Assembly (NCBI RefSeq): GCF_900177795.1
Contig: NZ_FXWJ01000002.1
Location: 620,001-684,000 of the forward strand
DNA length: 64,000 bases
Direction of reading: 5' to 3'
Source: Plantibacter elymi (nom. nud.)
GTDB lineage: Bacteria; Actinomycetota; Actinomycetes; Actinomycetales; Microbacteriaceae
A program made the position numbers and the translations under genes. Position 1 is the stretch's first letter, and each line of letters starts with the position of its first letter. The notes below the pieces were generated by a model. That model made no database searches. It worked only from the letters and a program-made list of their open reading frames with translations, and was not told the DNA's origin. Below, piece after piece: positions 28,184 to 42,540 of the stretch.

Positions 28184-28843
28184 TCAGAGGAGCTTGCGCT
28201 GCAGAGCCCAGGCGGCGAGTTCGTGGCGCGAGGACAGCTGCAGCTTGCGCAGCACGCTCGACACGTGGGTCTCCACGGTCTTCACGGAGATGAACAGCTC
28301 CGTCGCGACCTCCTTGTAGGCGTAGCCGCGGGCGATGAGGCGCATGACCTCCTGCTCACGGGCGGACAGCCGGTCGAGCTCGTCGACGGACTCCGCCGTC
28401 TCCCCCGTCACGGCACCGAAGGCGTCCAGGACGAATCCCGCGAGCCGGGGTGAGAAGACCGCGTCGCCGTCGTCGACCCGCCGTGCGGCCTCCGCGACCT
28501 CGGCCCCAGAGGAACTCTTCGTGATGTACCCACGGGCGCCGGCCCTGATCACCCGGACCACGTCCTCGGCGGCGTCCGAGACGCTGAGCGCGAGGAACCG
28601 GGTAGCAGGCGCGATCGACACCGACCCGGCGATCACGTCCGCGCCACCGCCGCCGGCACCACCCGGCAGGTGGACGTCGAGCAGCACGACCTGAGGGCGC
28701 GTCTCCCCGATCACCCGGATCGCCTCCTCCACGTCGCCGGCCTCCCCCAGCACCTCGATGCCGGGATCGAGTTCGCTGCGCAGGCCGGAACGGAAGATCG
28801 AATGGTCGTCGACGATCACGACGGTCAGTGGTCGGTCGCTCAT
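28184..28843 (-). CDS. LuxR-family response regulator (LiaR/NarL type)
   Basis: 219 residues. The receiver domain (about 6-128) has the acidic pair in VIVDDHS, the phospho-acceptor Asp in VVLLDVHLPGG and the Lys in the ITKSSSGAE region. The LuxR-type helix-turn-helix (about 150-215) is LSAREQEVMRLIARGYAYKEVA...VKTVETHVSSVLRKL. A small Gly/Ala-rich loop (GGAGGGGADV) is inserted after the phospho-acceptor. Its ATG overlaps the kinase stop by 4 bases, so the two are a coupled two-component system. Target genes are not identified; the divergent PspC gene is the obvious candidate. Confidence 0.93.
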   Translation of the reverse strand: MSDRPLTVVIVDDHSIFRSGLRSELDPGIEVLGEAGDVEEAIRVIGETRPQVVLLDVHLPGGAGGGGADVIAGSVSIAPATRFLALSVSDAAEDVVRVIRAGARGYITKSSSGAEVAEAARRVDDGDAVFSPRLAGFVLDAFGAVTGETAESVDELDRLSAREQEVMRLIARGYAYKEVATELFISVKTVETHVSSVLRKLQLSSRHELAAWALQRKLL

Positions 28844-30093
28844 GGTCGGCTCCTCGGAACGGTCGGGACGGGGTCGGGCTGCGGCGCGGGCGGTGCGGTG
28901 TCGTGGACGGGCAGGATGAGACGGACCTCGGTACCTCGTCCGCCGGGCCCCGAACGGATGGTCGCCTCGCCACCGATGCGCTGCATGCGGCCGATGATCG
29001 ACTCCCGGACCCCGAGGCGGTCCCGCGGGACCTGTTCCAGGTCGAAGCCGGGGCCGCGGTCGGAGATCGACACCTCGATCCGCTGCGGCGCCGTCTCCAG
29101 ATAGACGGAGACGTCGCCACCGGCGTGACGTGCCGCGTTGAGCACCGCCTCCCGTGCGGCGGCGAGGAGCGGCTCCGGAGCGTCGTCGATCGCACGCCCG
29201 ACCGCTACGACGTCGACGCGCACCGCGTGGTCGGCCTCCACCGCGGCCGCGATGGTCCGCAGCTCGGTCGCGAGGTCGCCCGTCGGAGCAGTCCCGCCGG
29301 AGAAGAGCCAGTTCCGCAGCTCGCGCTCTTGCGCCCGCGCGAGACGGGACGCCTCACTTCCCGGACCGGCCTGCTGCTGAATGAGTGCGAGCGTCTGGAG
29401 CACGGAGTCGTGCAGATGCGCGGCGATCTCGGCGCGGTCGGCCTCGCGCATCCGCGCGGCGCGCTCGTCGGCGAGGTCGCGGTTGAGCTGGAGCGCCCAC
29501 GGGGCGATGACCACGGCGACCCCGAGGAGCACGGCGATCGCTGCGACGATGACCGTCCACATGTTCGGGCGGTCACCGGTGACGAAGAACAGGAGGATGC
29601 CGAGGACGACGAGGACGAGCGCTCCGAGCACGCGGATCAGGAGGGCACGTGAGCCCTCCCCGCGACCACGCTCGCCGAACTGCCGCCACGCGAGTGCGGC
29701 TCCCGCGAGGACGACGATGACGGGGATGACGGCCTCGAGCGGGATGTCCAGCCCGGTCCGGGTCGCGATCAGCGCGGTCCCGGCCGCGAGCAGGGCGATC
29801 CCGAGCAGCACCTCCGTGATCGGCGCGCGACGGGGGCCGTCGAGGTCGCCTCCGTCATCGGTGGAGGCCGGCCGGAGCAGGTGCTCCCGGGGATCGAGCG
29901 GTGCGTCCGCGCCCTGCGTCGGCGTCATGACCCACAGCCACACGTAGAGGAGCAGGCCCGCTCCGCCGCAGCACGCGAGGATGACCGTCGCCGTCCGTAC
30001 CGCGGCGACGGGGAGACCGGTGTGCTCGGCGAAGCCGGCGCAGACACCGCCGAGCAGGCGGCGCCTCGGACGGATCATCACCTCGGTTCCCAT
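28840..30093 (-). CDS. PspC-domain sensor histidine kinase (LiaS-like)
   Basis: 417 residues. A PspC domain opens the protein (RPRRRLLGGVCAGFAEHTGL, residues 6-25), followed by its membrane helix and more hydrophobic segments up to about residue 195. The HisKA_3-type dimerisation domain carries H228 in AHLHDSVLQTL. The ATPase domain shows the N box in AVLNAARHAGG, the G1 box SDRGPGF and a terminal GGRGTEVRL. The frame extends to 30405, but homology begins at the ATG at 30093 (30078 is also possible). PspC kinases paired with LuxR-type regulators sense envelope stress in Actinobacteria. It is divergent from a LiaF-like PspC gene across 112 bases. Confidence 0.92.
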   Translation of the reverse strand: MGTEVMIRPRRRLLGGVCAGFAEHTGLPVAAVRTATVILACCGGAGLLLYVWLWVMTPTQGADAPLDPREHLLRPASTDDGGDLDGPRRAPITEVLLGIALLAAGTALIATRTGLDIPLEAVIPVIVVLAGAALAWRQFGERGRGEGSRALLIRVLGALVLVVLGILLFFVTGDRPNMWTVIVAAIAVLLGVAVVIAPWALQLNRDLADERAARMREADRAEIAAHLHDSVLQTLALIQQQAGPGSEASRLARAQERELRNWLFSGGTAPTGDLATELRTIAAAVEADHAVRVDVVAVGRAIDDAPEPLLAAAREAVLNAARHAGGDVSVYLETAPQRIEVSISDRGPGFDLEQVPRDRLGVRESIIGRMQRIGGEATIRSGPGGRGTEVRLILPVHDTAPPAPQPDPVPTVPRSRP

Positions 30094-30205
30094 GGAGCCA
30101 TCCAAGCAGTTCGGGGTGCGGTCGGCACCCTGGGACGGCAGGATCAGGGTGCACTCAGGGTCATACCGGATGGGCCCGACCCGGACGCTTCGCCAGAATC
30201 GGACC

Positions 30206-31711
30206 ATGACGAACCACAGCACGCCGCCCACCGGAGCAGAACCGGGGACACCAGCCCCGCAGGATCCGACGACCCGCTTCTTCGACTGGTGGCGGTCCAC
30301 CGGTCTCCGTCGCTCGAGCGACTCGTGGCTCGGCGGTGTCGCCGGTGGTGTCGCGGCCCGGCTCGGCCTCGATCCGATGATCGTGCGCGGAGCCCTCATC
30401 GTCATCGCGATCCTGGGCGGGCCGGTCCTCTTCGTCTACGCCGCGGGCTGGGCGCTCATCCCCGACCAACAGGGTCGGATCCACCTCGAGCGTGCGATCC
30501 GGGGCGTCTTCGACCCGGCGATCGTCGCGATCGGCATCCTCGCGGTCCTCACCGTCGTGCCGTTCATGCGCGGCCTCTGGTGGGACGGCGTGCCGCATGC
30601 GTGGAACCTGCCGGGGTGGCTGGAGTCGACCATGACCGCCGGTTGGGTGATCGCCTTGGTCGCCGCGGCGGTCTGGCTGATCGTGATGTTCTCCCGCCGC
30701 GACCCTGGGCGGGCGACTCCACCTGAGACACCGCCGCAGCGCGACCCGTGGACCAGCGACGCCTCGATCCCGAAGCCGACGGCACCATCGCCCACGGCCT
30801 CCCCCGCGGGCCCTACCGGCCCGGCCCCGGCGTCCCCCGGTGCCGCGAACCCGGTGTCGCTCGCGAAGGCCGACGGTTCGCCTGGTGATGCGAGCGCGAC
30901 CGTCCCACTCCCTGGAGCCACCACCGCCACCGCGTGGAACGGAGCTCCGAGCCACCAGCGCGGCTGGACGAGTCAGGAGTTCCGGGATGAGATGAGCCGC
31001 CAGCGAGCCGAGCAGCAGGCCGAGCGCGAGACGAAGGCTCGAGAGCGTCGTGCGCAGCGTCCTGGAGCGGCCTTCGTGGCCATCACCCTCGGGCTGGCAC
31101 TGCTCGCCGGTGCCGGCGCGGCCGTCATCGCGGCGAGCGCCGGGTTCTCGATCCCGGTCGTCGTGGTCATCGGGCTCGCCGCAGCGCTCGGTGCGCTCGC
31201 TGTCGCGACGATCGTCGCAGGCATCAGCGGACGGGAGAGCGGCTGGCTCGGACTGTTCACCTGGGCCGCCGTGATCTCCTTGCTCGCCACCGGGGTGTTC
31301 CCCCTCGGCTCCTCCTTCCTGCCGGTCGGACGCACGACCTGGACCGTGACGTCGACGGATGCGGACGACCGACGCGGCTACGTGATGATCGCCGGCCAAC
31401 CCACGCTCGACCTCGGCGAGCTCGCCGACGACGACGCCTTGCGCGGTGGCACGATCGACGTGTGGATCCTCGCAGGAGAGGTCGACGTGCTCATCCCCGA
31501 GGACGTGCCGGTGATCGTCGAGTTCTCAGCGATCGCGGGCACCCTCGAGACGGGACGCGATGGTCGGGACCGGACGGACCGCCGCGGCGGAGCCCTCTTC
31601 CAGGATGAGGCACGGTACGGACGTACGGCGTCAGGAGACACGACGCGGGTACGGGTGTGGACGGTCGCCGGCAGCGCCGTCGTGACCGAGGAAGCGGAGG
31701 CGGGACGATGA
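30206..31711 (+). CDS. PspC-domain membrane protein with LiaF-like C-terminus
   Basis: 501 residues. An N-terminal PspC domain (about 30-90; SSDSWLGGVAGGVAARLGLDP then a helix ending WALIPDQQG) is followed by membrane helices, a long Pro/Thr/Ala-rich linker (about 175-250), a charged helix (QRAEQQAERETKARERR), three more helices (about 285-375) and a beta-rich C-terminal domain (about 380-501). That last domain resembles the C-terminal part of LiaF-type proteins. LiaF regulates the LiaS kinase in Bacillus. Its position divergent from the PspC kinase suggests a partner of that kinase. The ATG at 30206 precedes the PspC domain; the open frame further upstream is ignored. Confidence 0.88.
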   Translation: MTNHSTPPTGAEPGTPAPQDPTTRFFDWWRSTGLRRSSDSWLGGVAGGVAARLGLDPMIVRGALIVIAILGGPVLFVYAAGWALIPDQQGRIHLERAIRGVFDPAIVAIGILAVLTVVPFMRGLWWDGVPHAWNLPGWLESTMTAGWVIALVAAAVWLIVMFSRRDPGRATPPETPPQRDPWTSDASIPKPTAPSPTASPAGPTGPAPASPGAANPVSLAKADGSPGDASATVPLPGATTATAWNGAPSHQRGWTSQEFRDEMSRQRAEQQAERETKARERRAQRPGAAFVAITLGLALLAGAGAAVIAASAGFSIPVVVVIGLAAALGALAVATIVAGISGRESGWLGLFTWAAVISLLATGVFPLGSSFLPVGRTTWTVTSTDADDRRGYVMIAGQPTLDLGELADDDALRGGTIDVWILAGEVDVLIPEDVPVIVEFSAIAGTLETGRDGRDRTDRRGGALFQDEARYGRTASGDTTRVRVWTVAGSAVVTEEAEAGR

Positions 31712-32874: not shown

Positions 32875-33633
32875 TCAGCCCGACAGTCCGGCCGAAGCCT
32901 CCTCGTAGCGGTCGACCACGAGGTCGACGATGCCGGGATCGGGAACCTCTCCGAGGTGGAGGAGCGGCGGCGTCACGAGGTCCGCTCCCGCCTCCTCGAG
33001 CAGCCTCGCGAAGTAGCCGGGCGCCAGCAGGTAGGTGGCGATGATGACCCGCCCTCGCGGTCGGCTCGTTCGCGCCGCCGCCACCGCGTCGGGCACCGAC
33101 GGCTGAGCCGCGGAGACGAACGCCGTCTCGACCGGCACACGCAGTCGCGATTCCAGCCGACGTCCCATGTCGACGCAGTCGGCGACGGCCCTGGCGTCGG
33201 TGGACCCGGCCGCTCCGAGCACGATCCGATCATCGGGCGTCACGTGCAGCGCCTCCAGTCGCCTGGCGAGGACCGTCACGAGGCGGTCGTCCGGTCCCAT
33301 CGCCCGCCCGAGTGCCGTCGGCCGATCCGTCGCCTCGAGGTCCTCGACGAGGTCGACGTGGACGTGGAACCCCGCGGACAGGAGCAAGGGCACGACCACC
33401 GCGGGCCGCTCGGGCTCGATCGAACCGAGGGTGGCCGGGACGTCGGGCTGCTGGACGTCGACGAAGCCGCCGGCGACGTGGAGGTCGGCACGCGCCCGTC
33501 CGACGGCGTCGACGAGCGCGGCGACGGAGGCCTGTCCGATCGGGCAACTCGTCCCGTGGGACACGGCCAGGAGCGCCGGACCCGTCCGCGGACGCGTCTG
33601 CAGGCGGCGAACCGCGGCCTCGAGCAGGGTCAT
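32875..33633 (-). CDS. CbiX-type sirohydrochlorin chelatase
   Basis: 252 residues, the long form with two fused half-domains of the CbiX family. The N-terminal half has the metal-binding histidines in AVSHGTSC (about 23-30) and [12 protein letters not shown] (about 84-95); the second half has the degenerate [11 protein letters not shown]. These enzymes insert Fe or Co into sirohydrochlorin. The setting beside nirBD and cobA argues for iron and siroheme, which NirB needs. The ATG overlaps the nirD stop by 4 bases, so nirD-cbiX is one minus-strand operon. The frame extends further upstream but that region is nirD. Confidence 0.9.
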
Positions 33634-34004
33634 GCGTCCTCCCCCAGCTCGATCTCCACGAAACCGCCCACGATGCGGGTGCGGAAGGTCTGGAGGAAGA
33701 GGTTCGGGTCGGTGAAGCACTCACCCGTGCCGAGGTCGTACACCTGCTTGTGCAGCGGTGACGCGATCGTCGGTCGCTCCCCTCGGGAACCGACGATGCC
33801 GCGAGCCATCACCGGCGCGTCCGTGTGCGGGTCCCGATGGTCGACGGCGTAGACCTCATCGGCCCCGATACGGAACACCGCGATCTGCCGGGCTCGGAGC
33901 AACGCCACCTCGCCCCAGGAGAGCTCGAGGTCGTCGATGGCGCAGACGCGTCGCCACTCGGCGAGCGCCGTCCGCCCGGTGTGCTCCTGCATCGTGATGC
34001 TCAT
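33630..34004 (-). CDS. nirD: Nitrite reductase small subunit NirD
   Basis: 124 residues with a Rieske-like fold. NirD assists NirB in the six-electron reduction of nitrite to ammonium. Segments VYAVDHRDPHTDA (about 53-65), GIVGSRGERPTIASPLHKQVYDL and TGECFTDP match the NirD subfamily. As in E. coli NirD, the Cys-His cluster ligands of true Rieske proteins are missing. The frame extends to 34067, but AGGAGG at 6-base spacing selects the ATG at 34004. It is divergent from nirB with 205 bases between; the shared region holds a candidate GlnR site. Confidence 0.93.
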   Translation of the reverse strand: MSITMQEHTGRTALAEWRRVCAIDDLELSWGEVALLRARQIAVFRIGADEVYAVDHRDPHTDAPVMARGIVGSRGERPTIASPLHKQVYDLGTGECFTDPNLFLQTFRTRIVGGFVEIELGEDA

Positions 34005-34022
34005 CGTCGGCCTCCTGGTCGT

Positions 34023-34040
34023 GCGTCGGAGCACCGACGC
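34023..34040. other. Hairpin in the nirD leader
   Basis: GCGTCGG (34023-34029) and CCGACGC (34034-34040) form a perfect 7-base stem with loop AGCA, between the candidate GlnR box and the nirD ribosome binding site. A role in mRNA stability or translation is possible but not shown. Confidence 0.35.
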
Positions 34041-34052
34041 TACGGGTGGGGT

Positions 34053-34090
34053 GTTTCGTCGGATCACCCGTGACGTTTCCGTGAGGTGAA
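34053..34090 (-). promoter_or_regulatory. Candidate GlnR binding site between nirD and nirB
   Basis: Read on the minus strand, four pentamers sit at exact 11-base spacing: TTCAC (34090-34086), GAAAC (34079-34075), GGTGA (34068-34064) and GAAAC (34057-34053). The known actinobacterial GlnR consensus is gTnAC-n6-GaAAC-n6-GtnAC-n6-GaAAC. Both GAAAC elements are perfect, the first element matches except its first base, and the third is poor. The site is 49 bases from nirD and 120 from nirB, suited to control both. nirBD is a known GlnR target in Streptomyces; binding here is inference. Confidence 0.6.
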
Positions 34091-34209
34091 ACCGACCTCA
34101 CATCCGCCCGGGCGTCGTGTGCGGTCCTGGACGCGTTCGGGACACATGCGGGCAACGGTCCGGAAACGCCGCGTCAGTACGCTCGCTGGAACACGAGCCG
34201 AGGGGGCCC

Positions 34210-36813
34210 ATGATGATCGATCCCACCGCAGGAGATCTGCCGCGTCGCGTCGTCGTGGTCGGTGGCGGCCCGGCCGCGCACCGTCTGGTCGACGCCCTGC
34301 ACAGTCGCGATGCCGGGCGCACGATGCACATCACGGTCGTCTGCGAGGAGCTCCACCGTCCCTACGATCGTGTGGCGCTGAGCAAGCGTCTCGACGATGC
34401 GGCGATCGACCTCACGCTCGCGCCGACGGGCGTCTGGGACGAGCAGCACGTGTCGCTCCTGCTGGGCGAACGCGCCGAGCGGATCGACCGCGAGGCCCGG
34501 ACGGTGCACACCTCCCTGGGGCGGGTCGTCGCGTACGACGAGCTGGTCCTGGCGACCGGCTCCTCGGCCCCGGTGCCCGAGATCGATGGTTCGGAACACG
34601 CCCTCGTCTACCGGACGATCGACGACGTGGACCTGCTGGTGTCGGAGATCGAGCGAATCGGCTCCCTGCGAGGTCGTCCCGCCCGGGTGATCGTCGCCGG
34701 CGGCGGGTTGCTCGGGCTCGAGGCTGCCGGTGGTGCGGCACGGCTCGGTGCCGAGGCGAGCGTCGTGCACTCCGGGTCGTGGCTCATGTCCGCCCAGCTG
34801 GACGAGGGAGCCGGTCGAGCCCTCGGGCGCATCATCGGCGGCCAGGGCATCGGTCTGCACCTGGGGACGAGGCCCCGGTCGATCCTCGTGGACGAGCAGG
34901 GCGGTGTCTCGGGCGTGAAGTTCTCGAGCGGCCAGCAGGTCGACGTCGACATCGTGGTGTTCGCGATCGGTATCCGCGCCAGGGACGAGCTGGCCCGCGA
35001 TGCCGGGATCGAGCTCGGTGACCGCGGCGGTGTCGTGATCGGGACCGACTGCAGGACGTCTGCGCCTGGTGTCTGGGCCATCGGCGAGGTCGCGTGCTTC
35101 GACGGTCGATGCACCGGTCTCGTCGCGCCGGCGAACGCGATGGCCGAGGTCGTCGCGGATCGGCTGCTCGGTGGCCAGGCGGAGTTCACGATCGTCGACG
35201 ACGCGACGAAACTCAAGCTCTCCGGTGTCGACGTCGCGAGTTTCGGCGACGCACTCGCGCGCACCGAGCACAGTCTCGAGATCGTGTACGCGGACCCGGC
35301 GCGCGGGCTGTACCAGAAGCTCGTCATGACGGACGACGCCAAGACCCTCCTGGGCGGGGTCTTCGTCGGCGACGCCTCGCCCTACGCCTCGCTGCGTCCG
35401 CTCCTCGGCGCTGAGCTGTCGAGTGAGCCGGCCGCCTACCTGTCGGCCTCAGGGATCGAGGCACCGGCCGGGGACGAGCTCCCCGACGCAGCGCTCGTCT
35501 GCGCATGCAACGCCGTCACCGCGGGGACCGTCCGCGACGCGATCGCGGGCGTGCACGGCGAGGCGTGCACCGAGCTGGGGGCCCTCAAGACCTGCTCCCG
35601 TGCCGGGACCCAGTGCGGCTCCTGCGTCCCGCTCGTGAAGAAGATCCTCGAGACGGAGCTGACGAAGTCCGGCATCGCCGTCTCGCGGGCACTCTGCGAA
35701 CACTTCGAACTGTCCCGCCAGGAGCTGTTCGAGACCATCCGGGTGCTCGGCCTCACCTCCTTCGACGAGATCCTCGCGCGCTACGGCACCGGCCGCGGCT
35801 GCGACGTGTGTAAGCCGGTGGTCGGTTCCATCCTGGCCAGCCAGCAGGGTGGGTACATCCTCGACGGCGGTCGGGGGACGCTGCAGGACACGAACGACCG
35901 TGCGCTCGCGAACATGCAGAAGGACGGCACCTACTCCGTGGTCCCCCGGATCCCCGGTGGCGAGATCACACCGCAGAAGCTCGCGGTGATCGCGCAGGTC
36001 GCCACCGACTACGGGCTGTACACGAAGATCACGGGCGGTCAACGCATCGACCTGTTCGGCGCGCGCCTCGAACAGCTGCCCGACATCTGGCGCATCCTCG
36101 TCGACGCCGGCTTCGAGTCCGGACAGGCGTACGGGAAGTCGCTCCGCAACGTGAAGAGCTGTGTCGGCTCCAGCTGGTGCCGCTTCGGCGTGCAGGACTC
36201 CGTGGGCATGGCGGTCCACCTCGAACTCCGGTACCGCGGCCTCCGGGCACCGCACAAGTTCAAGTTCGGGGTCTCGGGGTGCGCGCGCGAGTGCGCCGAA
36301 GCACGTGGCAAGGATGTGGGGATCATCGCCACCGAGCAGGGCTGGAACCTGTACGTCGGCGGCAACGGAGGGTTTCAGCCGACCCACGCGCAGCTCCTCG
36401 CCGGAGACCTCGACGACGAGACGCTCATCCGGTACATCGACCGCTACCTCATGTACTACATCCGGACGGCGGATCGACTGCAGCGCACCGCCAGGTGGAT
36501 GGAGGATCTCGACGGCGGACTCGACCACGTGCGGGAGGTCGTCGTCGAGGACTCGCTCGGACTCGCCGCCGAACTCGAACAGGCCATGGCCGCCCATGTG
36601 GACGGGTACGAGGACGAGTGGGCGGCGACCCTCGCCGACCCGGAGCGCCTCCGCCGGTTCCGGTCCTTCGTCAACGAGCCGGGCGACGCCGAACCGCGAC
36701 TCGCGCGGGTCGCGGAGCGAGGCCAGTACCGGCCCGCGACGACGGAGGAGATCGAGCGCGGCGAGGCCGTCTATCTCGCAGGGCCTACCATTCCAGTGAG
36801 GGAAGGGGCATAG
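34210..36813 (+). CDS. nirB: NAD(P)H-dependent nitrite reductase large subunit NirB
   Basis: 867 residues. NirB reduces nitrite to ammonium using NAD(P)H, FAD, Fe-S centres and siroheme. The FAD/NAD reductase part (1-410) has VVVVGGGPAAHRLV and a second GGGLLGLEAAGG fold. BFD-type [2Fe-2S] ligands follow in CACNAVT and QCGSC (about 425-480). The ferredoxin-half and sulfite/nitrite reductase domains (about 545-800) carry siroheme/4Fe-4S ligands C651, C657, C691 and C695. ATG 34210 or 34213 follows GAGGGG; upstream open frame is not used. The stop TAG is directly followed by the cobA ATG. Nitrogen control is probable through the upstream GlnR-like box. Confidence 0.96.
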   Translation: MMIDPTAGDLPRRVVVVGGGPAAHRLVDALHSRDAGRTMHITVVCEELHRPYDRVALSKRLDDAAIDLTLAPTGVWDEQHVSLLLGERAERIDREARTVHTSLGRVVAYDELVLATGSSAPVPEIDGSEHALVYRTIDDVDLLVSEIERIGSLRGRPARVIVAGGGLLGLEAAGGAARLGAEASVVHSGSWLMSAQLDEGAGRALGRIIGGQGIGLHLGTRPRSILVDEQGGVSGVKFSSGQQVDVDIVVFAIGIRARDELARDAGIELGDRGGVVIGTDCRTSAPGVWAIGEVACFDGRCTGLVAPANAMAEVVADRLLGGQAEFTIVDDATKLKLSGVDVASFGDALARTEHSLEIVYADPARGLYQKLVMTDDAKTLLGGVFVGDASPYASLRPLLGAELSSEPAAYLSASGIEAPAGDELPDAALVCACNAVTAGTVRDAIAGVHGEACTELGALKTCSRAGTQCGSCVPLVKKILETELTKSGIAVSRALCEHFELSRQELFETIRVLGLTSFDEILARYGTGRGCDVCKPVVGSILASQQGGYILDGGRGTLQDTNDRALANMQKDGTYSVVPRIPGGEITPQKLAVIAQVATDYGLYTKITGGQRIDLFGARLEQLPDIWRILVDAGFESGQAYGKSLRNVKSCVGSSWCRFGVQDSVGMAVHLELRYRGLRAPHKFKFGVSGCARECAEARGKDVGIIATEQGWNLYVGGNGGFQPTHAQLLAGDLDDETLIRYIDRYLMYYIRTADRLQRTARWMEDLDGGLDHVREVVVEDSLGLAAELEQAMAAHVDGYEDEWAATLADPERLRRFRSFVNEPGDAEPRLARVAERGQYRPATTEEIERGEAVYLAGPTIPVREGA

Positions 36814-37593
36814 ATGTCGGGTCCAGGCAGGGTCACGCTCGTCGGCGGCGGACCGGGCGATCCCGCGCTGCTGACCGTCGCCGCCGTCGAGGCCCTCCGC
36901 GACGCGGACGTGGTCCTCTACGACCGGCTCGCACCCCACGACGCCCTCCCCGAGCTCGCCCCGAACGCGCTCCTCGTCGACGTCGGCAAGCGCCCCGGCC
37001 ATCACCCGATCGGCCAGGACGGCATCGAGACGGTCATGGTGCGACACGCGCTCGACGGCGCGGCGGTCGTCCGGCTCAAGGGAGGCGACCCGTACGTCTT
37101 CGGGCGCGGCAGCGAGGAAGTCCTGGCCTGCCACCGCGCGGGCGTCCCCGTCCGCGTGATCCCTGGCGTCTCGAGTTCCGTCGCCGTGCCCGCGGCGGCA
37201 GGCATCCCCCTCACCCACCGGAATCTGAGTCACCTCTTCACCGTTGTCAGCGGTCACGCGCCGCTCTCCGACGAGGAACACCGTCACCTCGCCGGACTGG
37301 GCGGGACGATCGTCGTCCTCATGGGCGTCGGCACGCTGCCCTCAATCTCCCACGGGCTCCTCACCTCGGGGCTCGCCGCCGACACCCCTGTCGCGATCAT
37401 CGAGCGCGGCTACAGCGAGACCCAGCGCACCACCGTGGCAGACCTCGGGACGATCCTCCACGTCGCCGCAGCCGCCGGTGTGCGGTCACCGGCGGTCATC
37501 GTGATCGGCCACGTCGTCGCCTTCGCCTTCGACGGTGACGCCGAGGCCTCGGAACTGCTGGCGCGGGCCGAACGTCTGGGGGCATCGGCGTGA
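36814..37593 (+). CDS. cobA: Uroporphyrinogen-III C-methyltransferase (SUMT)
   Basis: 259 residues. SUMT adds two SAM-derived methyl groups to uroporphyrinogen III to give precorrin-2, the first step to siroheme. The signatures LVGGGPGDPALLT (about 9-21), VVRLKGGDPYVFGRG (about 86-100) and VIPGVSS are all present. The single-domain length shows that the CysG N-terminal dehydrogenase/ferrochelatase part is absent. It starts with no gap after the nirB stop (TAGATG) and overlaps the next gene by GTGA, so nirB-cobA-nnaR-like is a tightly coupled operon supplying NirB with siroheme. Confidence 0.94.
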   Translation: MSGPGRVTLVGGGPGDPALLTVAAVEALRDADVVLYDRLAPHDALPELAPNALLVDVGKRPGHHPIGQDGIETVMVRHALDGAAVVRLKGGDPYVFGRGSEEVLACHRAGVPVRVIPGVSSSVAVPAAAGIPLTHRNLSHLFTVVSGHAPLSDEEHRHLAGLGGTIVVLMGVGTLPSISHGLLTSGLAADTPVAIIERGYSETQRTTVADLGTILHVAAAAGVRSPAVIVIGHVVAFAFDGDAEASELLARAERLGASA

Positions 37594-38753
37594 CCGACAC
37601 CACCCCGCCGGCCGCTGACGCCGGCCCGGACGTCACGACCCCGGTTCCGGGATTCCGCGCGGACCAGCTCGAGGGCTTCCGGATCGGGGTGACGAGCGAC
37701 CGTCGATCGCAGGACCTCATCGACGCCTTCGAGCGGCGCGGTGCCACCGTCGTGCACGCACCGACCCTCCGGATCGCGCACGCACAGCATGACGAGCCCC
37801 TCATCGACGACACCCGCGACATCATCGCCGCACGCCCCGATGTCCTGCTCGCCACGACCTCGTACGGCATCCGACGGTGGTTCGAGGTCGCGGACGCCGC
37901 TGGACTCGGCGACGAACTCCTCGAAGCGCTGGCCGAGACGGCCATCCTCGTCCGTGGGCCCAAGGCACGCGGTGCCATCCGAGCGGCCGGCCTGAACGAC
38001 GTGGGCATGAGCGACCGCGAGACCACCGCCTCCCTCGTCGACAAGGTCGTCGCCGACTACCCGGCTGGTCTCCGCGTCGCCGTTCAGCTCCACGGGTACA
38101 CCGACGAGCGCCAGCTCGAACGGCTCCGTGCCGTCCACCAGGAGGTGCACACGGTCGCCCCGTACCGGTGGACGGACCCCGACGCGACCGACGAGCGCGT
38201 GCGGCGACTCGTCGAGGCGATCGTGAGCGGCTCGCTCGACGCGGTCACCTTCACGAGTGCCCCGTCGGTCGTCGCCCTGTTCACGGCCGCGGAAGCACTC
38301 GGTCAGGAGGACGCCGTCGTCGACGCCTTCCGTCGCGACGTGCTGTGCGCAGCGGTCGGCCCGGTCACGGCGGCCCCACTGCTCGCTCAGGACATCCGGC
38401 CCATCGTCCCCGAGCGGTTCCGCATGGGGGCGCTCATCCGGCTGCTGTGCGAACACCTCGAGCAGCACGCGATCCTCCGAGCCGAGACGCTGCACGGCCC
38501 GATCGCCATCCGTGGCGCCATCGTGGAGCTGCCCGGGTCCAGGGTCCGGCTCCCCCCGAACTCCCTCGCGCTCCTCCGCGCCCTGGTCCGCGCGAACGGA
38601 GCCGTCCTCTCGCGCTCCGCACTGGCCGACGCGCTGCCCGCAGCCGCGGACCATCACGCGCTCGAAGTGCAGATGAGCCGCCTCCGCCAGACGCTCGGCG
38701 TCCCCGGACTCATCAACACGATCGTCAAGCGCGGCTACCGCCTCGACGTCTGA
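37590..38753 (+). CDS. HemD-like domain fused to OmpR-type winged helix (NnaR-like regulator)
   Basis: 387 residues. Residues about 25-285 form a uroporphyrinogen-III synthase-like bilobal fold (GFRIGVTSDRRSQDLI, then TFTSAPSVVALF and AAVGPVTAAPL). Residues about 305-387 form an OmpR/PhoB-type winged helix ending in VKRGYRLDV. This is the layout of Streptomyces NnaR, which acts with GlnR on nitrite-reductase genes. The domain order and the position in the nir operon support a regulator rather than a haem enzyme, though synthase activity is not excluded. The GTG start overlaps the cobA stop by 4 bases. Confidence 0.88.
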   Translation: MTDTTPPAADAGPDVTTPVPGFRADQLEGFRIGVTSDRRSQDLIDAFERRGATVVHAPTLRIAHAQHDEPLIDDTRDIIAARPDVLLATTSYGIRRWFEVADAAGLGDELLEALAETAILVRGPKARGAIRAAGLNDVGMSDRETTASLVDKVVADYPAGLRVAVQLHGYTDERQLERLRAVHQEVHTVAPYRWTDPDATDERVRRLVEAIVSGSLDAVTFTSAPSVVALFTAAEALGQEDAVVDAFRRDVLCAAVGPVTAAPLLAQDIRPIVPERFRMGALIRLLCEHLEQHAILRAETLHGPIAIRGAIVELPGSRVRLPPNSLALLRALVRANGAVLSRSALADALPAAADHHALEVQMSRLRQTLGVPGLINTIVKRGYRLDV

Positions 38754-38827
38754 CGGCGGCCGGTCCGGTCCCTGGACCGCGCGCGGTCATCCGCCTCACC
38801 AGGGTGATGAGTGCCTGTGAGCAGGCG

Positions 38828-38865
38828 GTTATCCAGGTGTTACCTCGCGGGTGGGGCACCGAAAC
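38828..38865 (+). promoter_or_regulatory. Candidate GlnR binding site upstream of narK
   Basis: Four pentamers sit at exact 11-base spacing: GTTAT (38828-38832), GTTAC (38839-38843), GGTGG (38850-38854) and GAAAC (38861-38865). The first and last fit gTnAC and GaAAC well and the second partly; the third resembles the weak third element (GGTGA) of the nirD/nirB site. The array ends 65 bases before the narK ATG. Confidence 0.5.
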
Positions 38866-38930
38866 ACGGCGTCGGTAGCTTCGGAGACAGCACACGTCCC
38901 GTCCCGCTTCACCGAACGCTCGGAGCAGCC

Positions 38931-40349
38931 ATGACCACGAACCTCGAAGCAGCCGACGCCCCACCGACCACGGCGACACCGACCGTCACCCCGGTCGCCC
39001 TGACCCACCGACCCGGTCGTTGGATCGACGGGTGGAACCCCGAGGACAGCGCGTTCTGGGACCGGGAGGGCCGCGGCATCGCCGGGCGGAACCTCCGGTG
39101 GTCGATCTTCGCGGAGTTCCTCGGCTTCGTGGTCTGGCAGCTCTGGAGCATCGTCGTCGTCATGCTCCCGACGGCCGGGTTCTCGTTCTCCACGGCCGAG
39201 ACCTTCTGGCTCATCTCGATGCCGAGCCTCGTCGGTGCGACCCTCAGGTTCCCGTACTCGTTCATGGTCCCGCGCTTCGGCGGGCGGAACTGGACGATCA
39301 TCTCGGCGGGGCTGCTCCTCATCCCGTCCATCGCGCTCGCGCTGTGTGTGGGCAATCCGGACACCCCGTTCGGCGTCATGCTCGTCGTCGCCGGGCTCGC
39401 CGGCTTCGGCGGTGGCAACTTCGCCAGCTCCATGTCGAACATCACCTACTTCTACCCGCAGCGGGAGAAGGGCTGGGCGCTCGGGCTGAACGCGGCGGGC
39501 GGCAACCTCGGTGCAGCGGTCGCGCAGTTCGTCGTCCCCATCGCGGTCACCGTCGGAGCCGCCGCCACTCTCAACCTGAGCCTCGCCGGATGGATCTGGG
39601 TCCCCTTCATCCTTCTCGCGATGTTCGGCGCCTACCGATACATGGACAACCTGTCGTCAGCGAAAGCGGACCTCCGCGGATCCGCCGCCGCGCTCCGGGA
39701 ACCGCACCTCTGGCTCCTCGCACTCCTGTACATCGGCACCTTCGGCTCGTTCATCGGCTTCGCGAGTGTGTTCCCCAAGCTCATCGCGGACCAGTTCCCC
39801 GACTTCTCCTCGTTCGCCGTCGGTTCGGCATCGATCTCGCTCGCGTTCCTCGGAGCCCTGATCGGCTCGCTGGCACGACCCTTCGGTGGGCGTCTCGCCG
39901 ACCGCTTCGGTGGGGCCGTCGTCACGATGAGCGCGTTCGCCGTCATGGCCCTGGGGGCGCTCGCGGTGCTGTGGACCCTGCCGCTGGCGAACTTCTGGCT
40001 GTTCCTCGGGTGCTTCCTGCTCCTGTTCGTCGCCGCCGGTGTCGGGAACGGCTCGACGTACCGCATGATCCCGAGCGTCTTCGCGGCGCGATCCGGCCTG
40101 CGCGACGCCCACCACCGCAGCGGCGACGTCGGGACGCAGCGCAAGGCCGCCGCCGCGCTCGGGCTCATCTCCGCGATCGGTGCCTACGGCGGCTTCGTGA
40201 TCCCGCAGATCCTCGGGCTCTCGCACGGCGCGACCGGCAGCTACTCGGCCGCGTTCATCGGTTTCATCGGCGCGTACGTCGTCCTGTTCGCGGTCACCTT
40301 CCTCGTCTACTTCCGCAAGAACGCGTCGCTCGCCGGCCAGCGACTCTGA
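38931..40349 (+). CDS. narK: Nitrate/nitrite transporter, MFS NNP family
   Basis: 472 residues with about twelve membrane helices from residue 60 on, after a 55-residue cytoplasmic leader. The two nitrate signatures are visible: AGFGGGNFASSMSNITYF (about 159-176) and VGNGSTYRMIPSVF (about 373-386). NNP carriers take up nitrate by proton symport or exchange it for nitrite; sequence alone does not say which. With NasA downstream, uptake for assimilation is likely. The ATG at 38931 is preceded by a candidate GlnR site; the 177 bases upstream show no terminator for the nirB operon. nasA follows after 37 bases. Confidence 0.94.
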   Translation: MTTNLEAADAPPTTATPTVTPVALTHRPGRWIDGWNPEDSAFWDREGRGIAGRNLRWSIFAEFLGFVVWQLWSIVVVMLPTAGFSFSTAETFWLISMPSLVGATLRFPYSFMVPRFGGRNWTIISAGLLLIPSIALALCVGNPDTPFGVMLVVAGLAGFGGGNFASSMSNITYFYPQREKGWALGLNAAGGNLGAAVAQFVVPIAVTVGAAATLNLSLAGWIWVPFILLAMFGAYRYMDNLSSAKADLRGSAAALREPHLWLLALLYIGTFGSFIGFASVFPKLIADQFPDFSSFAVGSASISLAFLGALIGSLARPFGGRLADRFGGAVVTMSAFAVMALGALAVLWTLPLANFWLFLGCFLLLFVAAGVGNGSTYRMIPSVFAARSGLRDAHHRSGDVGTQRKAAAALGLISAIGAYGGFVIPQILGLSHGATGSYSAAFIGFIGAYVVLFAVTFLVYFRKNASLAGQRL

Positions 40350-40386: not shown

Positions 40387-42540
40387 ATGCCTCGTCCCAC
40401 CGCCCCGGTGACCGACACCCACTGCCCGTACTGCGCGTTGCAGTGCGCGATGTCCCTCACCCGAACGGCGGCGGTGGACGGGGTCGCTCCGAGGCTCCCG
40501 GTCGACGTCGCCGGGCGGGACTTCCCGACGAACCGGGGCGGCCTCTGCAAGAAGGGGTGGACGTCGGCCGAGCTCCTCGCGCGGGGCGATCGCCTCACGA
40601 CCCCCTTGGTGCGCGACGCCACCGGTGCGCTGGTCGAGACGAGCTGGGATGCGGCCCTCGATCTCGTCGCATCGACCATCCTCCGCATCCGCGGTGAGCG
40701 CGGGGCGGACGCGATCGGGGTCTTCGGAGGCGGTGGCCTCACGAACGAGAAGGCCTACCAGCTGGGCAAGTTCGCGAGGATCGCGATCGGGACGAGCCGG
40801 ATCGACTACAACGGTCGGTTCTGCATGTCGTCCGCCGCGGCAGCGGGCAACCGCGCGTTCGGGATCGACCGGGGGCTGCCGTTCCCACTGGAGGACCTCG
40901 ACGACGCGTCGACCATCCTGCTCCTCGGATCCAACGTCGCGGAGACGATGCCCCCGTTCATCGGTCATCTCGTCGGTGCTCAGGCCGCCGGTGGCCTCGT
41001 CGTGGTCGATCCGCGCCGCTCGGCCACCGCGCGACTCACCGAGACCGGTCGTGGACTCCACGTGCAGCCCGCGCCCGGAACGGATCTGGTCCTACTCCTG
41101 GGGCTCACGCACATCGTCCTCGCCGAAGGACTCGCCGACGAGGCCTACCTGGCCGAGCGCACGACCGGGCTGGACGGCCTGCGCCGCAGCGTGAGCGCAT
41201 GGTGGCCGGAACGCGTCCAATCCGTGACCGGCGTGCCGGCGCCGGTCCTCCGAGACGTGGCTCGTCGGCTCGCCGCCTCGGACGGCACCTACATCCTCAC
41301 CGGTCGCGGCGTCGAGCAACATGTCGACGGCACCGACACGGCCACCGCCGCCATCAACCTCGCACTCGTGCTCGGACTGCCGGGCCGGCCGGGATCGGGC
41401 TACGGCACGCTCACCGGCCAGGGCAACGGCCAGGGCGGCCGCGAACACGGTCAGAAATGCGACCAACTGCCCGGGTACCGCAAGATCACCGATCCGGAAG
41501 CCCGCAGTCACGTCGCCGAGGTGTGGGGTGTGCCGGTCGAATCGATCCCCGGTCCCGGGCTGCCGGCCGTCGCCCTCTTGAACCGACTCGGTGAACCGGA
41601 CGGTGTGCACGCGCTCCTGGTCCACGGCTCGAACGTCGTCGTATCCGCTCCGAACGTGCAGACGGTCCGGGACGGACTCCGACGCCTCGAGCTGCTCGTC
41701 GTCTGCGACTTCTTCCTGTCGGAGACCGCCGTACTCGCGGACGTCGTCCTCCCGACGACGCAGTGGGCGGAGGAGGATGGCACCATGACCTCGCTGGAGG
41801 GGCGTGTGATCCGCCGCCGGCGGGCGCTCGATGCCCCGGTCGGCGTCCGCAGCGAGCTCTGGATCATGCACGAACTCGCCCGTCGTCTCGATGCTCCGGG
41901 CCGATTCGAGCTGGACCCGTCGATCGTGTTCGACGAGTTGGCGGCCGCATCCGCCGGAGGCCTCGCCGACTACTCGGGACTGAGCCACGCCCTGCTCGAC
42001 ACCGGGCTCGCCGCGCACTGGCCGTTCCCCGTCGGCAGCGTCGGCACGCCCCGGCTGTTCACGGAACGGTTCGCACACGACGACGGTCTCGCCCGCATCG
42101 TCCCGGTCCGCCCCGCGAAGGTCTCGGAGTCACCGGGGACCGGGGAGGAACTCACCCTGACGACCGGACGCCTTCTCGAGCACTACCAGTCGGGCACCCA
42201 GACCCGCCGCGTCCCCGAGCTCGACGACGCCCGTCCCGAGGTCTTCGTCCAGGTCCACCCCGCGACGGCGGCACGACTCGGGATCGTCGAGGGCGGACTG
42301 GTCGAGGTGTCGAACCGTCGGGGCACGCTGACGGTCCGAGCCCGTGTCGACGGCGACATCCGTCACGACACCGTCTTCCTGCCGTTCCACTACCCGGGGG
42401 ACGCTTCGGCGAACCTCCTGACGCAGGACGCGGTCGATCCGATCTCGGGGATGCCGGACTTCAAGCGCGCGATGGTGCGGCTGCGCCCGGCCGCTGGCGC
42501 ACCACTGCCGGAAGCCACAGCGACCGGAGCCCTCCGATGA
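40387..42540 (+). CDS. nasA: Assimilatory nitrate reductase catalytic subunit
   Basis: 717 residues of the molybdopterin oxidoreductase (DMSO reductase) family. The N-terminal [4Fe-4S] ligands are C13, C16, C20 and C54; the probable Mo ligand C146 lies in NGRFCMSS, as in Nas/Nap enzymes. A bis-MGD binding C-terminal barrel (about 590-700) closes the protein. No Tat signal precedes the cluster, so it is a cytoplasmic assimilatory enzyme, not NapA. The C-terminal BFD domain found in some NasA proteins is absent here and is instead on the next gene, whose ATG overlaps the stop by 4 bases. Confidence 0.94.
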   Translation: MPRPTAPVTDTHCPYCALQCAMSLTRTAAVDGVAPRLPVDVAGRDFPTNRGGLCKKGWTSAELLARGDRLTTPLVRDATGALVETSWDAALDLVASTILRIRGERGADAIGVFGGGGLTNEKAYQLGKFARIAIGTSRIDYNGRFCMSSAAAAGNRAFGIDRGLPFPLEDLDDASTILLLGSNVAETMPPFIGHLVGAQAAGGLVVVDPRRSATARLTETGRGLHVQPAPGTDLVLLLGLTHIVLAEGLADEAYLAERTTGLDGLRRSVSAWWPERVQSVTGVPAPVLRDVARRLAASDGTYILTGRGVEQHVDGTDTATAAINLALVLGLPGRPGSGYGTLTGQGNGQGGREHGQKCDQLPGYRKITDPEARSHVAEVWGVPVESIPGPGLPAVALLNRLGEPDGVHALLVHGSNVVVSAPNVQTVRDGLRRLELLVVCDFFLSETAVLADVVLPTTQWAEEDGTMTSLEGRVIRRRRALDAPVGVRSELWIMHELARRLDAPGRFELDPSIVFDELAAASAGGLADYSGLSHALLDTGLAAHWPFPVGSVGTPRLFTERFAHDDGLARIVPVRPAKVSESPGTGEELTLTTGRLLEHYQSGTQTRRVPELDDARPEVFVQVHPATAARLGIVEGGLVEVSNRRGTLTVRARVDGDIRHDTVFLPFHYPGDASANLLTQDAVDPISGMPDFKRAMVRLRPAAGAPLPEATATGALR

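What the first reader, a model, noticed from the sequence alone, without database searches (positions are those of the whole stretch)
34053..38865. Two GlnR-like arrays with identical 4 x 11-base architecture in the nitrate cluster
Between nirD and nirB (34053-34090, minus strand) and before narK (38828-38865, plus strand) four pentamers are spaced exactly 11 bases apart. The first reads TTCAC/GAAAC/GGTGA/GAAAC, the second GTTAT/GTTAC/GGTGG/GAAAC. Both fit the GlnR consensus gTnAC-n6-GaAAC-n6-GtnAC-n6-GaAAC in part, and both share a diverged third element beginning GGTG, which could be a lineage-specific variant. GlnR control of nitrate genes is established in Streptomyces and mycobacteria; here it is read from sequence only.
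Basis: partly seen in the sequence, partly recalled or inferred. Interest (0 to 1): 0.7.

Follow-up and report, generated by a model that had tools for sequence, protein, structure and literature searches.

The report
Shared two-regulator switch for nitrite reductase
The two spotted DNA arrays look like parts of nitrogen-control promoters in an actinobacterium, where sites for two regulators (GlnR and NnaR) lie on one evenly spaced DNA grid and a single central NnaR-type site is shared by the oppositely pointing promoters of the two nitrite reductase subunits.

Summary
Both arrays are present letter for letter and look GlnR-bound, but the finding saw part of the structure. The genome is close to Plantibacter flavus. 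An NnaR-type regulator (HemD fused to a winged helix) lies in the cluster, and each promoter carries the published NnaR dyad, here CTCAC-N17-GTGnG. One dyad (34097-34123) is shared by divergent nirD (array 1) and nirB, whose array (34130-34167) was missed; another (38795-38821) precedes narK. Half-sites and GlnR slots share an 11-bp lattice; TAnnnT follows the last GAAAC after 10 nt. A GlnR matrix built without nitrate-cluster sites, with slot 3 ignored, ranks the three arrays 1-3 of 127,926 window positions; with slot 3, narK falls to 12. In 61 related nirD-nirB regions the dyad gap is 17 or 18 in 49. The GGTG element is not a lineage-wide GlnR variant: nirD and narK promoters mostly leave that slot degenerate, whereas all 24 glnA promoters read fill it. 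NnaR/GlnR co-regulation is known; the shared dyad with mirrored arms seems a new variant. No binding or expression was measured.

The parts
33630..34004 (-). nirD, nitrite reductase small subunit
   Evidence: Rieske_2 PF13806 (on the longer ORF); TIGR02378 nirD 95.9 bits, over its cut-off
34037..34042 (-). -10-like TAGCGT of nirD, 10 nt after the last GAAAC
   Evidence: TAnnnT at this distance in 48 of 52 nirD arms, one base further in the other 4
34053..34090 (-).
   Evidence: rank 1 of 127,926 in four of five matrix scans, rank 3 in the other
34097..34123 (.). NnaR-type dyad CTCAC-N17-GTGCG shared by the nirD and nirB promoters
   Evidence: published motif in passages; gap 17 or 18 in 49 of 61 related regions
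34130..34167 (+).
   Evidence: matrix ranks 3, 3, 2, 2, 525 in five scans
34178..34183 (+). -10-like TACGCT of nirB
   Evidence: same distance in 50 of 52 nirB arms
34210..36813 (+). nirB, nitrite reductase large subunit
   Evidence: TIGR02374 956 bits
36814..37593 (+). uroporphyrinogen-III C-methyltransferase (siroheme synthesis)
   Evidence: TIGR01469 266 bits
37590..38753 (+). nnaR: HemD domain fused to an OmpR-type winged helix
   Evidence: PF02602 plus PF00486; 99% identical to a Plantibacter flavus protein
38795..38821 (+). NnaR-type dyad CTCAC-N17-GTGAG of narK
38828..38865 (+).
   Evidence: matrix ranks 12, 2, 117, 8, 248 in five scans
38876..38881 (+). -10-like TAGCTT of narK
38931..40349 (+). 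narK, nitrate/nitrite transporter
   Evidence: MFS_1 (on the longer ORF); NarK and NarU models below their curated cut-offs
40387..42540 (+). nasA/nasC-type assimilatory nitrate reductase
   Evidence: Molybdopterin domains; NasC model 697 bits, below its cut-off of 1100

Best explanation
These are NnaR-plus-GlnR composite promoters for nitrate and nitrite assimilation. An NnaR dimer binds a CTCAC-N17-GTGAG dyad whose half-sites start 22 bp apart. GlnR binds head to tail in 11-bp slots that continue outward from each half-site in the same register (offsets 12, 23, 34, 45 from the GTG). The last slot, GAAAC, lies 10 nt before a TAnnnT -10 element, so GlnR would help RNA polymerase at the promoter. 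Between nirD and nirB one dyad serves two mirrored GlnR arms, so both enzyme subunits would be switched on together; narK-nasA has its own one-armed copy. Each arm leaves one of four GlnR slots degenerate (slot 3 at nirD and narK, slot 1 at nirB), which would weaken GlnR alone and make the promoter depend on NnaR. SHOWN by sequence: letters, register, -10, the glnR and nnaR genes, conservation. INFERRED: protein occupancy, cooperativity, activation, and the reason for the degenerate slot.
For: Letters and coordinates. nnaR in the cluster; glnR in the genome. Published NnaR motif ctCAC[a/c]-16N-[t/g]GTGag near GlnR motifs, and NnaR shifting nirB and narK promoter DNA in M. smegmatis (PMC6277429, passages); motif CTCAC..13-16..GTGAG (PMC11162112, passages). 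Composite CTCAC-N17-GTGNG-N39-GAAAC in the 4.12-Mb genome: 3 exact (nirB, narK, one unrelated) and 1 with one mismatch (nirD); reversed-pattern control 0 at up to one mismatch. Gap scan over 61 regions: gap 17 in 30, gap 18 in 19, gap 15 in 5, every other gap from 8 to 29 in at most 2. nirD arm, fixed register, A at position 4: slots 1-4 in 51, 51, 18 and 52 of 52. TAnnnT at the fixed distance in 50 of 52 nirB and 48 of 52 nirD arms, background 205 of 39,230 positions. Exact composite in 16 of 27 NnaR-positive versus 0 of 63 NnaR-negative family genomes, L007-type site left out. In an Arthrobacter strain nirBD and nasAB rise on nitrate against ammonium (PMC12010642, passages).
Against: No binding or expression data for this organism. 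One exact composite match (C4:38376, L007) is at an unrelated TetR/oxidoreductase locus and is also in NnaR-less G002, so the pattern is not fully specific. At two mismatches the own genome has 23 hits against 6 control hits. 11 of 27 NnaR-positive family genomes have no exact composite; in one of the 16 that do (G085) the site is about 580 kb from nnaR. Genomes without NnaR may lack the nitrite reductase genes too (not tested), so the co-occurrence partly counts presence of the cluster. At fixed register the nirB arm has A at position 4 of slots 1-4 in only 42, 34, 34 and 34 of 52; 16 of 52 need a shift of one base, so the lattice is not rigid. narK scores poorly as a four-slot GlnR site. The sequences are related, so Fisher values are not independent tests. 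MtrA and PhoP are reported to bind GlnR-like boxes.
Confidence: 0.8

Rival explanations
1. Plain GlnR promoters: GlnR alone binds four slots and GGTG is a lineage-specific third-slot variant.
For: GlnR present; arrays rank high with a GlnR matrix; GGTGA is the same in the nirD arm of all 6 same-genus genomes that have the site.
Against: Slot 3 is not GGTG in most other genera or in narK of two same-genus genomes; glnA promoters in the same family fill slot 3 (24 of 24 read have A at position 4); the conserved dyad is unexplained.
Confidence: 0.08
2. The boxes are used mainly by MtrA or PhoP (OmpR-family regulators with similar repeats), with GlnR secondary or competing.
For: PMC6277429 (passages) reports near-identical MtrA and GlnR motifs and earlier MtrA binding at nirB; PMC11162112 (passages) cites PhoP and MtrA competing with GlnR.
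Against: The same slots and -10 spacing are at glnA promoters, a classical GlnR target. MtrA and PhoP genes were not searched for here, and sequence alone cannot separate competing proteins.
Confidence: 0.06
3. In array 1, slots 1 and 3 (TTCAC ... GGTGA) form a second, overlapping NnaR dyad (TTCACC-N16-GGTGAT), so GGTGA is an NnaR half-site rather than an empty GlnR slot.
For: The spacing equals the M. smegmatis form of the motif, and GGTGA is conserved in the nirD arm within the genus.
Against: Rarely seen in other genera; the halves match 8 of 10 letters; narK has GTTAT in place of the partner half-site.
Confidence: 0.08
4. The repeats are chance similarity in GC-rich intergenic DNA.
For: Short motifs; one unrelated exact composite match; array 2 ranks only 117 and 248 in two of five matrix scans.
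Against: Ranks 1-3 of 127,926 without slot 3; dyad gap and slot register conserved over 18 genus labels.
Confidence: 0.01

Closest known systems
NnaR-GlnR co-activated promoters of Streptomyces coelicolor and Mycobacterium smegmatis (Amin 2012, not held, seen only as cited; Antczak 2018, PMC6277429, passages)
   Same: HemD-winged-helix regulator, CTCAC...GTGAG palindrome beside a GlnR box, targets nirB and narK, similar spacing of the two motifs in most promoters, start site downstream of the GlnR motif.
   Different: Here one dyad is shared by divergent nirD and nirB promoters with mirrored GlnR arrays, half-sites and slots fall on one 11-bp lattice (gap 17 in this genome), and one GlnR slot per arm is degenerate. 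In the passages read, mycobacterial nirBD is one transcription unit.
Amycolatopsis mediterranei nas promoter, a1-b1-b2 GlnR sites
   Same: Three of four GlnR sites needed, with a2, the third in order, dispensable (review PMC10704036, passages; the original paper is not held), as in the nirD and narK arms.
   Different: The passage gives a 16-bp b1-b2 spacer (17 here) and mentions no NnaR dyad.
Four-site GlnR promoters such as glnA (GlnR-RNA polymerase complex)
   Same: Head-to-tail 11-bp slots; last slot 10 nt before TAnnnT in 24 of 24 family glnA promoters read; the review reports four GlnR DNA-binding domains head to tail on a four-site promoter.
   Different: glnA fills all four slots. The NnaR-linked promoters add a dyad and leave one slot degenerate.

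Membership tests
GlnR-regulated promoter (actinobacterial GlnR) | glnR gene in the genome | tested here: met
   PF21695 144.6 bits plus PF00486 98.5 bits, C3:90219
GlnR-regulated promoter (actinobacterial GlnR) | gTnAC-n6-GaAAC type repeats scoring above background with a matrix built elsewhere | tested here: met
   Array 1 rank 1 of 127,926 with all four slots; array 2 rank 12 with all four slots, rank 2 when slot 3 is ignored, ranks 117, 8 and 248 in three other combinations
GlnR-regulated promoter (actinobacterial GlnR) | GlnR binds and controls transcription | not testable with these tools
   No experiments possible
NnaR-regulated promoter | CTCAC[A/C]-N-GTGAG dyad near the GlnR box | tested here: met
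   38795-38821 perfect halves; 34097-34123 with one mismatch (GTGCG); gap 17
NnaR-regulated promoter | Exact M. smegmatis spacing (18 bases between CAC and GTG) | tested here: not met
   17 here; 17 in 30 and 18 in 19 of 61 regions. The motif given for S. coelicolor and Mtb promoters allows a range
NnaR-regulated promoter | Co-occurrence of the site with an nnaR gene | tested here: met
   16 of 27 versus 0 of 63 family genomes, L007-type site left out, 1 of 63 if counted; partly counts presence of the gene cluster
NnaR protein | HemD domain fused to a C-terminal winged helix | tested here: met
   PF02602 and PF00486; in 12 of 12 Streptomyces loci the relative sits beside narK
NnaR protein | Not the housekeeping uroporphyrinogen-III synthase | tested here: inconclusive
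   A separate HEM4 gene exists at C1:65377; activity not testable, and NCBIfam names this protein a uroporphyrinogen-III synthase
NnaR protein | Binds the dyad | not testable with these tools
   No binding assay

The most novel reading that the evidence does not exclude
NnaR and GlnR form one continuous head-to-tail filament on a single 11-bp DNA lattice. One NnaR dimer at the centre nucleates GlnR outward in both directions, so a single event opens two divergent promoters and sets matched output of the two nitrite reductase subunits. The degenerate GlnR slot makes this an AND gate for nitrogen limitation (GlnR) and the NnaR signal.
Probability: 0.4. Interest if true: 0.65.

Novelty: new variant of a known kind. 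Interest (0 to 1): 0.48.

Why it matters
How NnaR helps GlnR is unresolved: in M. smegmatis only weak direct association was seen (PMC6277429, passage). The lattice gives a concrete geometric model, namely an NnaR half-site one 11-bp step before the first GlnR slot, which can be tested by adding or removing single bases. It also gives a genome-searchable promoter grammar for nitrate assimilation in Micrococcales. Among the titles listed by the searches run here (capped lists, open-licence papers only) I saw no NnaR study in that group.

Tried and rejected
GGTG as a GlnR variant: rejected as a cross-lineage rule. C4:38376 (L007) as a fourth NnaR target: rejected, because slots 1-3 do not fit, it lies at a TetR/oxidoreductase boundary, and it persists in NnaR-less G002. 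The composite pattern at one or two mismatches as a stand-alone finder: rejected as unspecific, controls hit too. narK promoters as a uniform set: of 35 narK loci (L104 left out), 12 Microbacteriaceae arms were chosen by eye for the slot-3 count; 12 of 12 Streptomyces loci have a dyad of at least 9 of 10 (gap 18 in 10, gap 16 in 2), with the last slot one base off register in 10, in register in 1 and cut off in 1; L112, L138 and L140 have dyads but an unclear -10; the other 8 have no convincing dyad at narK. Of the 9 nirD-nirB regions without a dyad of at least 9 of 10 at gap 17 or 18, 8 show a weaker or gap-16 dyad and arms visible by eye (L091 only in part) and L100 shows none. Papers not held: Amin 2012 and Wang 2013; what is said of them comes from passages of PMC10704036, PMC6277429 and PMC11162112.
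Full report
WHAT IS THERE. The two arrays are exactly as described. The genome is Plantibacter or very close: its HemD-winged-helix protein is 99% identical to that of a P. flavus record. The cluster runs nirD (minus strand) | nirB, uroporphyrinogen-III C-methyltransferase, nnaR | narK, nasA-type nitrate reductase. Array 1 therefore lies upstream of nirD and array 2 upstream of narK. Each promoter also has a CTCAC-N17-GTGnG dyad: 38795-38821 before narK, and 34097-34123 between nirD and nirB. Counted from the first base of the GTG half-site, the pentamers start at offsets 12, 23, 34 and 45 at narK, at nirB and, reading the same dyad on the other strand, at nirD. The nirB array GACGC/GACAC/GCAAC/GAAAC (34130-34167) was not in the finding. 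In all three, TAnnnT starts 11 nt after the last GAAAC. With gap 17 the two half-sites start 22 bp apart, so half-sites and slots share one 11-bp lattice.

IS IT MORE THAN CHANCE. A matrix was built from 21 GlnR sites found with fixed consensus patterns: 18 from other genomes and 3 from this one. Seventeen of the 21 lie at glnA (positions), two at a second glutamine synthetase gene (own and a same-genus copy), one at own amtB, and one (G020) at a gene not checked, in a genome without a listed NnaR match. Because the sites were chosen by a pattern, the matrix stays close to that pattern. Five slot combinations were scanned over 127,926 window positions. With slots 1, 2 and 4 the best three are nirD, narK and nirB. 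With all four slots the ranks are nirD 1, nirB 3, narK 12 (rank 2 is a minus-strand position inside the narK promoter). With slots 2, 3, 4 they are 3, 2, 117; with 2 and 4, 1, 2, 8; with 1 and 2, 1, 525, 248 (in the order nirD, nirB, narK). Leaving out slot 3 was chosen after seeing the arrays. The composite dyad-plus-GAAAC pattern occurs exactly three times in 4.12 Mb (nirB, narK, one unrelated place) and once with one mismatch (nirD), against no control hit at up to one mismatch; at two mismatches there are 23 hits against 6 control hits. The unrelated place (L007) fails slots 1-3 and is also present in a same-genus genome without NnaR.

CONSERVATION. One (L104) was dropped, two (L082, L135) were skipped for a partial nirB, 16 had no nirD-nirB pair, and 61 had a usable divergent region. 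Scanning every gap from 8 to 29 for CTCAC-N-GTGAG at 9 of 10 or better gave 30 regions at gap 17, 19 at gap 18, 5 at gap 15 and at most 2 at any other. In 52 regions with 18 genus labels (one of them a family-level MAG) a dyad of at least 9 of 10 at gap 17 or 18 was used to read the arms outward. At fixed register, A is at position 4 of slots 1-4 in 51, 51, 18 and 52 of 52 nirD arms, and in 42, 34, 34 and 34 of 52 nirB arms (the half-site itself is matched by selection). If a one-base shift is allowed, chosen by the fit of slot 4 to GAAAC, the nirB arm has it in 31, 50, 49 and 50 of 52 (slot 4 partly by that choice), and 16 of 52 needed the shift. The dinucleotide AC at the four slot positions is found in 0.90, 0.94, 0.31 and 0.69 of nirD arms and 0.23, 0.65, 0.58 and 0.46 of nirB arms against a mean of about 0.05 elsewhere, though some other positions reach 0.2-0.37. 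TAnnnT follows at the fixed distance in 50 of 52 nirB arms and 48 of 52 nirD arms (4 more at +1), background 205 in 39,230 positions. Ten of the 149 genomes show two composite matches on opposite strands 44 bases apart, that is one shared dyad: six of the same genus (own included) and G015, G031, G048 and G135.

NnaR LINK. In the window's family (90 genomes, own included) 27 have NnaR at E <= 1e-25. An exact composite, leaving out the L007-type site, is found in 16 of those 27 and in 0 of the 63 others; counting the L007-type site makes it 1 of 63. In G085 the exact site is about 580 kb from nnaR. One exact match outside the family (G101, 89% complete) is in a genome with no NnaR match. The published motif comes from passages of PMC6277429 and PMC11162112. 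These report that NnaR binds nirB and narK promoter DNA in M. smegmatis by EMSA, that the GlnR and NnaR motifs are similarly spaced in most promoters, and that direct association was weak.

THE THIRD ELEMENT. GGTG is not a conserved GlnR variant. In glnA promoters all four slots are filled: of 30 loci fetched from 59 genomes with a match, 24 could be read (6 starts not found; 7 of the 24 are of the window's genus); slot 3 has A at position 4 in 24 of 24 (AC at its end in 15), and TAnnnT is at +11 in 24 of 24. In 12 Microbacteriaceae narK arms, picked by eye from 35 narK loci, slot 3 has that A in 0 of 12; in nirD arms in 17 or 18 of 52 depending on register handling. The review PMC10704036 (passages) reports that the A at position 4 is irreplaceable and that in the Amycolatopsis nas promoter the a2 site is not required, which matches this arrangement. 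Within the genus the nirD GGTGA is the same in 6 of 6 genomes with the site, while narK has GGTGG in 4 and GGTCG in 2.

MECHANISM (inferred). NnaR on the dyad and GlnR in the outward slots activate promoters that have a TAnnnT -10. A shared dyad between nirD and nirB couples the two subunits. The degenerate slot plausibly makes GlnR binding depend on NnaR. MtrA or PhoP may use the same boxes; sequence cannot tell. In an Arthrobacter strain nirBD and nasAB were higher on nitrate than on ammonium and GlnR was proposed as regulator (PMC12010642, passages), which fits but does not test the model.

NOVELTY. NnaR-GlnR co-regulation is known. The paper searches (open-licence papers, capped lists, titles and abstract starts seen) listed nothing on a shared NnaR dyad with mirrored GlnR arms or on this lattice. 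I call it a new variant of a known kind.

Noticed in passing
window 37590-38753: NCBIfam NF005568 names this NnaR-type regulator 'uroporphyrinogen-III synthase' (428 bits, cut-off 273), although the genome has a separate HEM4 gene at C1:65377: possibly a family-wide misnaming.
   Followed up: partly
L007 (own genome C4:38376-38446): Exact composite-pattern match between a TetR-like gene and an oxidoreductase, conserved in the genus, also in a genome without NnaR; probably another kind of site.
   Followed up: partly
L104: A contig titled Vibrio cholerae strain 35D carries an actinobacterial nnaR-narK-nasA cluster resembling the Arthrobacter loci: apparent contamination in the public record.
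   Followed up: no
window 34002-34067: The nirD ORF begins at GTG 34067 mechanically, but AGGAGG and ATG at 34004 fit the promoter better.
   Followed up: yes
window 28840-31711: Two opposite-strand PspC-domain ORFs (overlapping as called), one with a histidine-kinase-like ATPase domain.
   Followed up: no
L081, L083, L085, L087, L095, L108 (Agromyces) and other loci: The nirB arm lies one base closer to the dyad than in the window (shift -1 in 16 of 52 regions), while most nirD arms keep the 11-bp step.
   Followed up: partly
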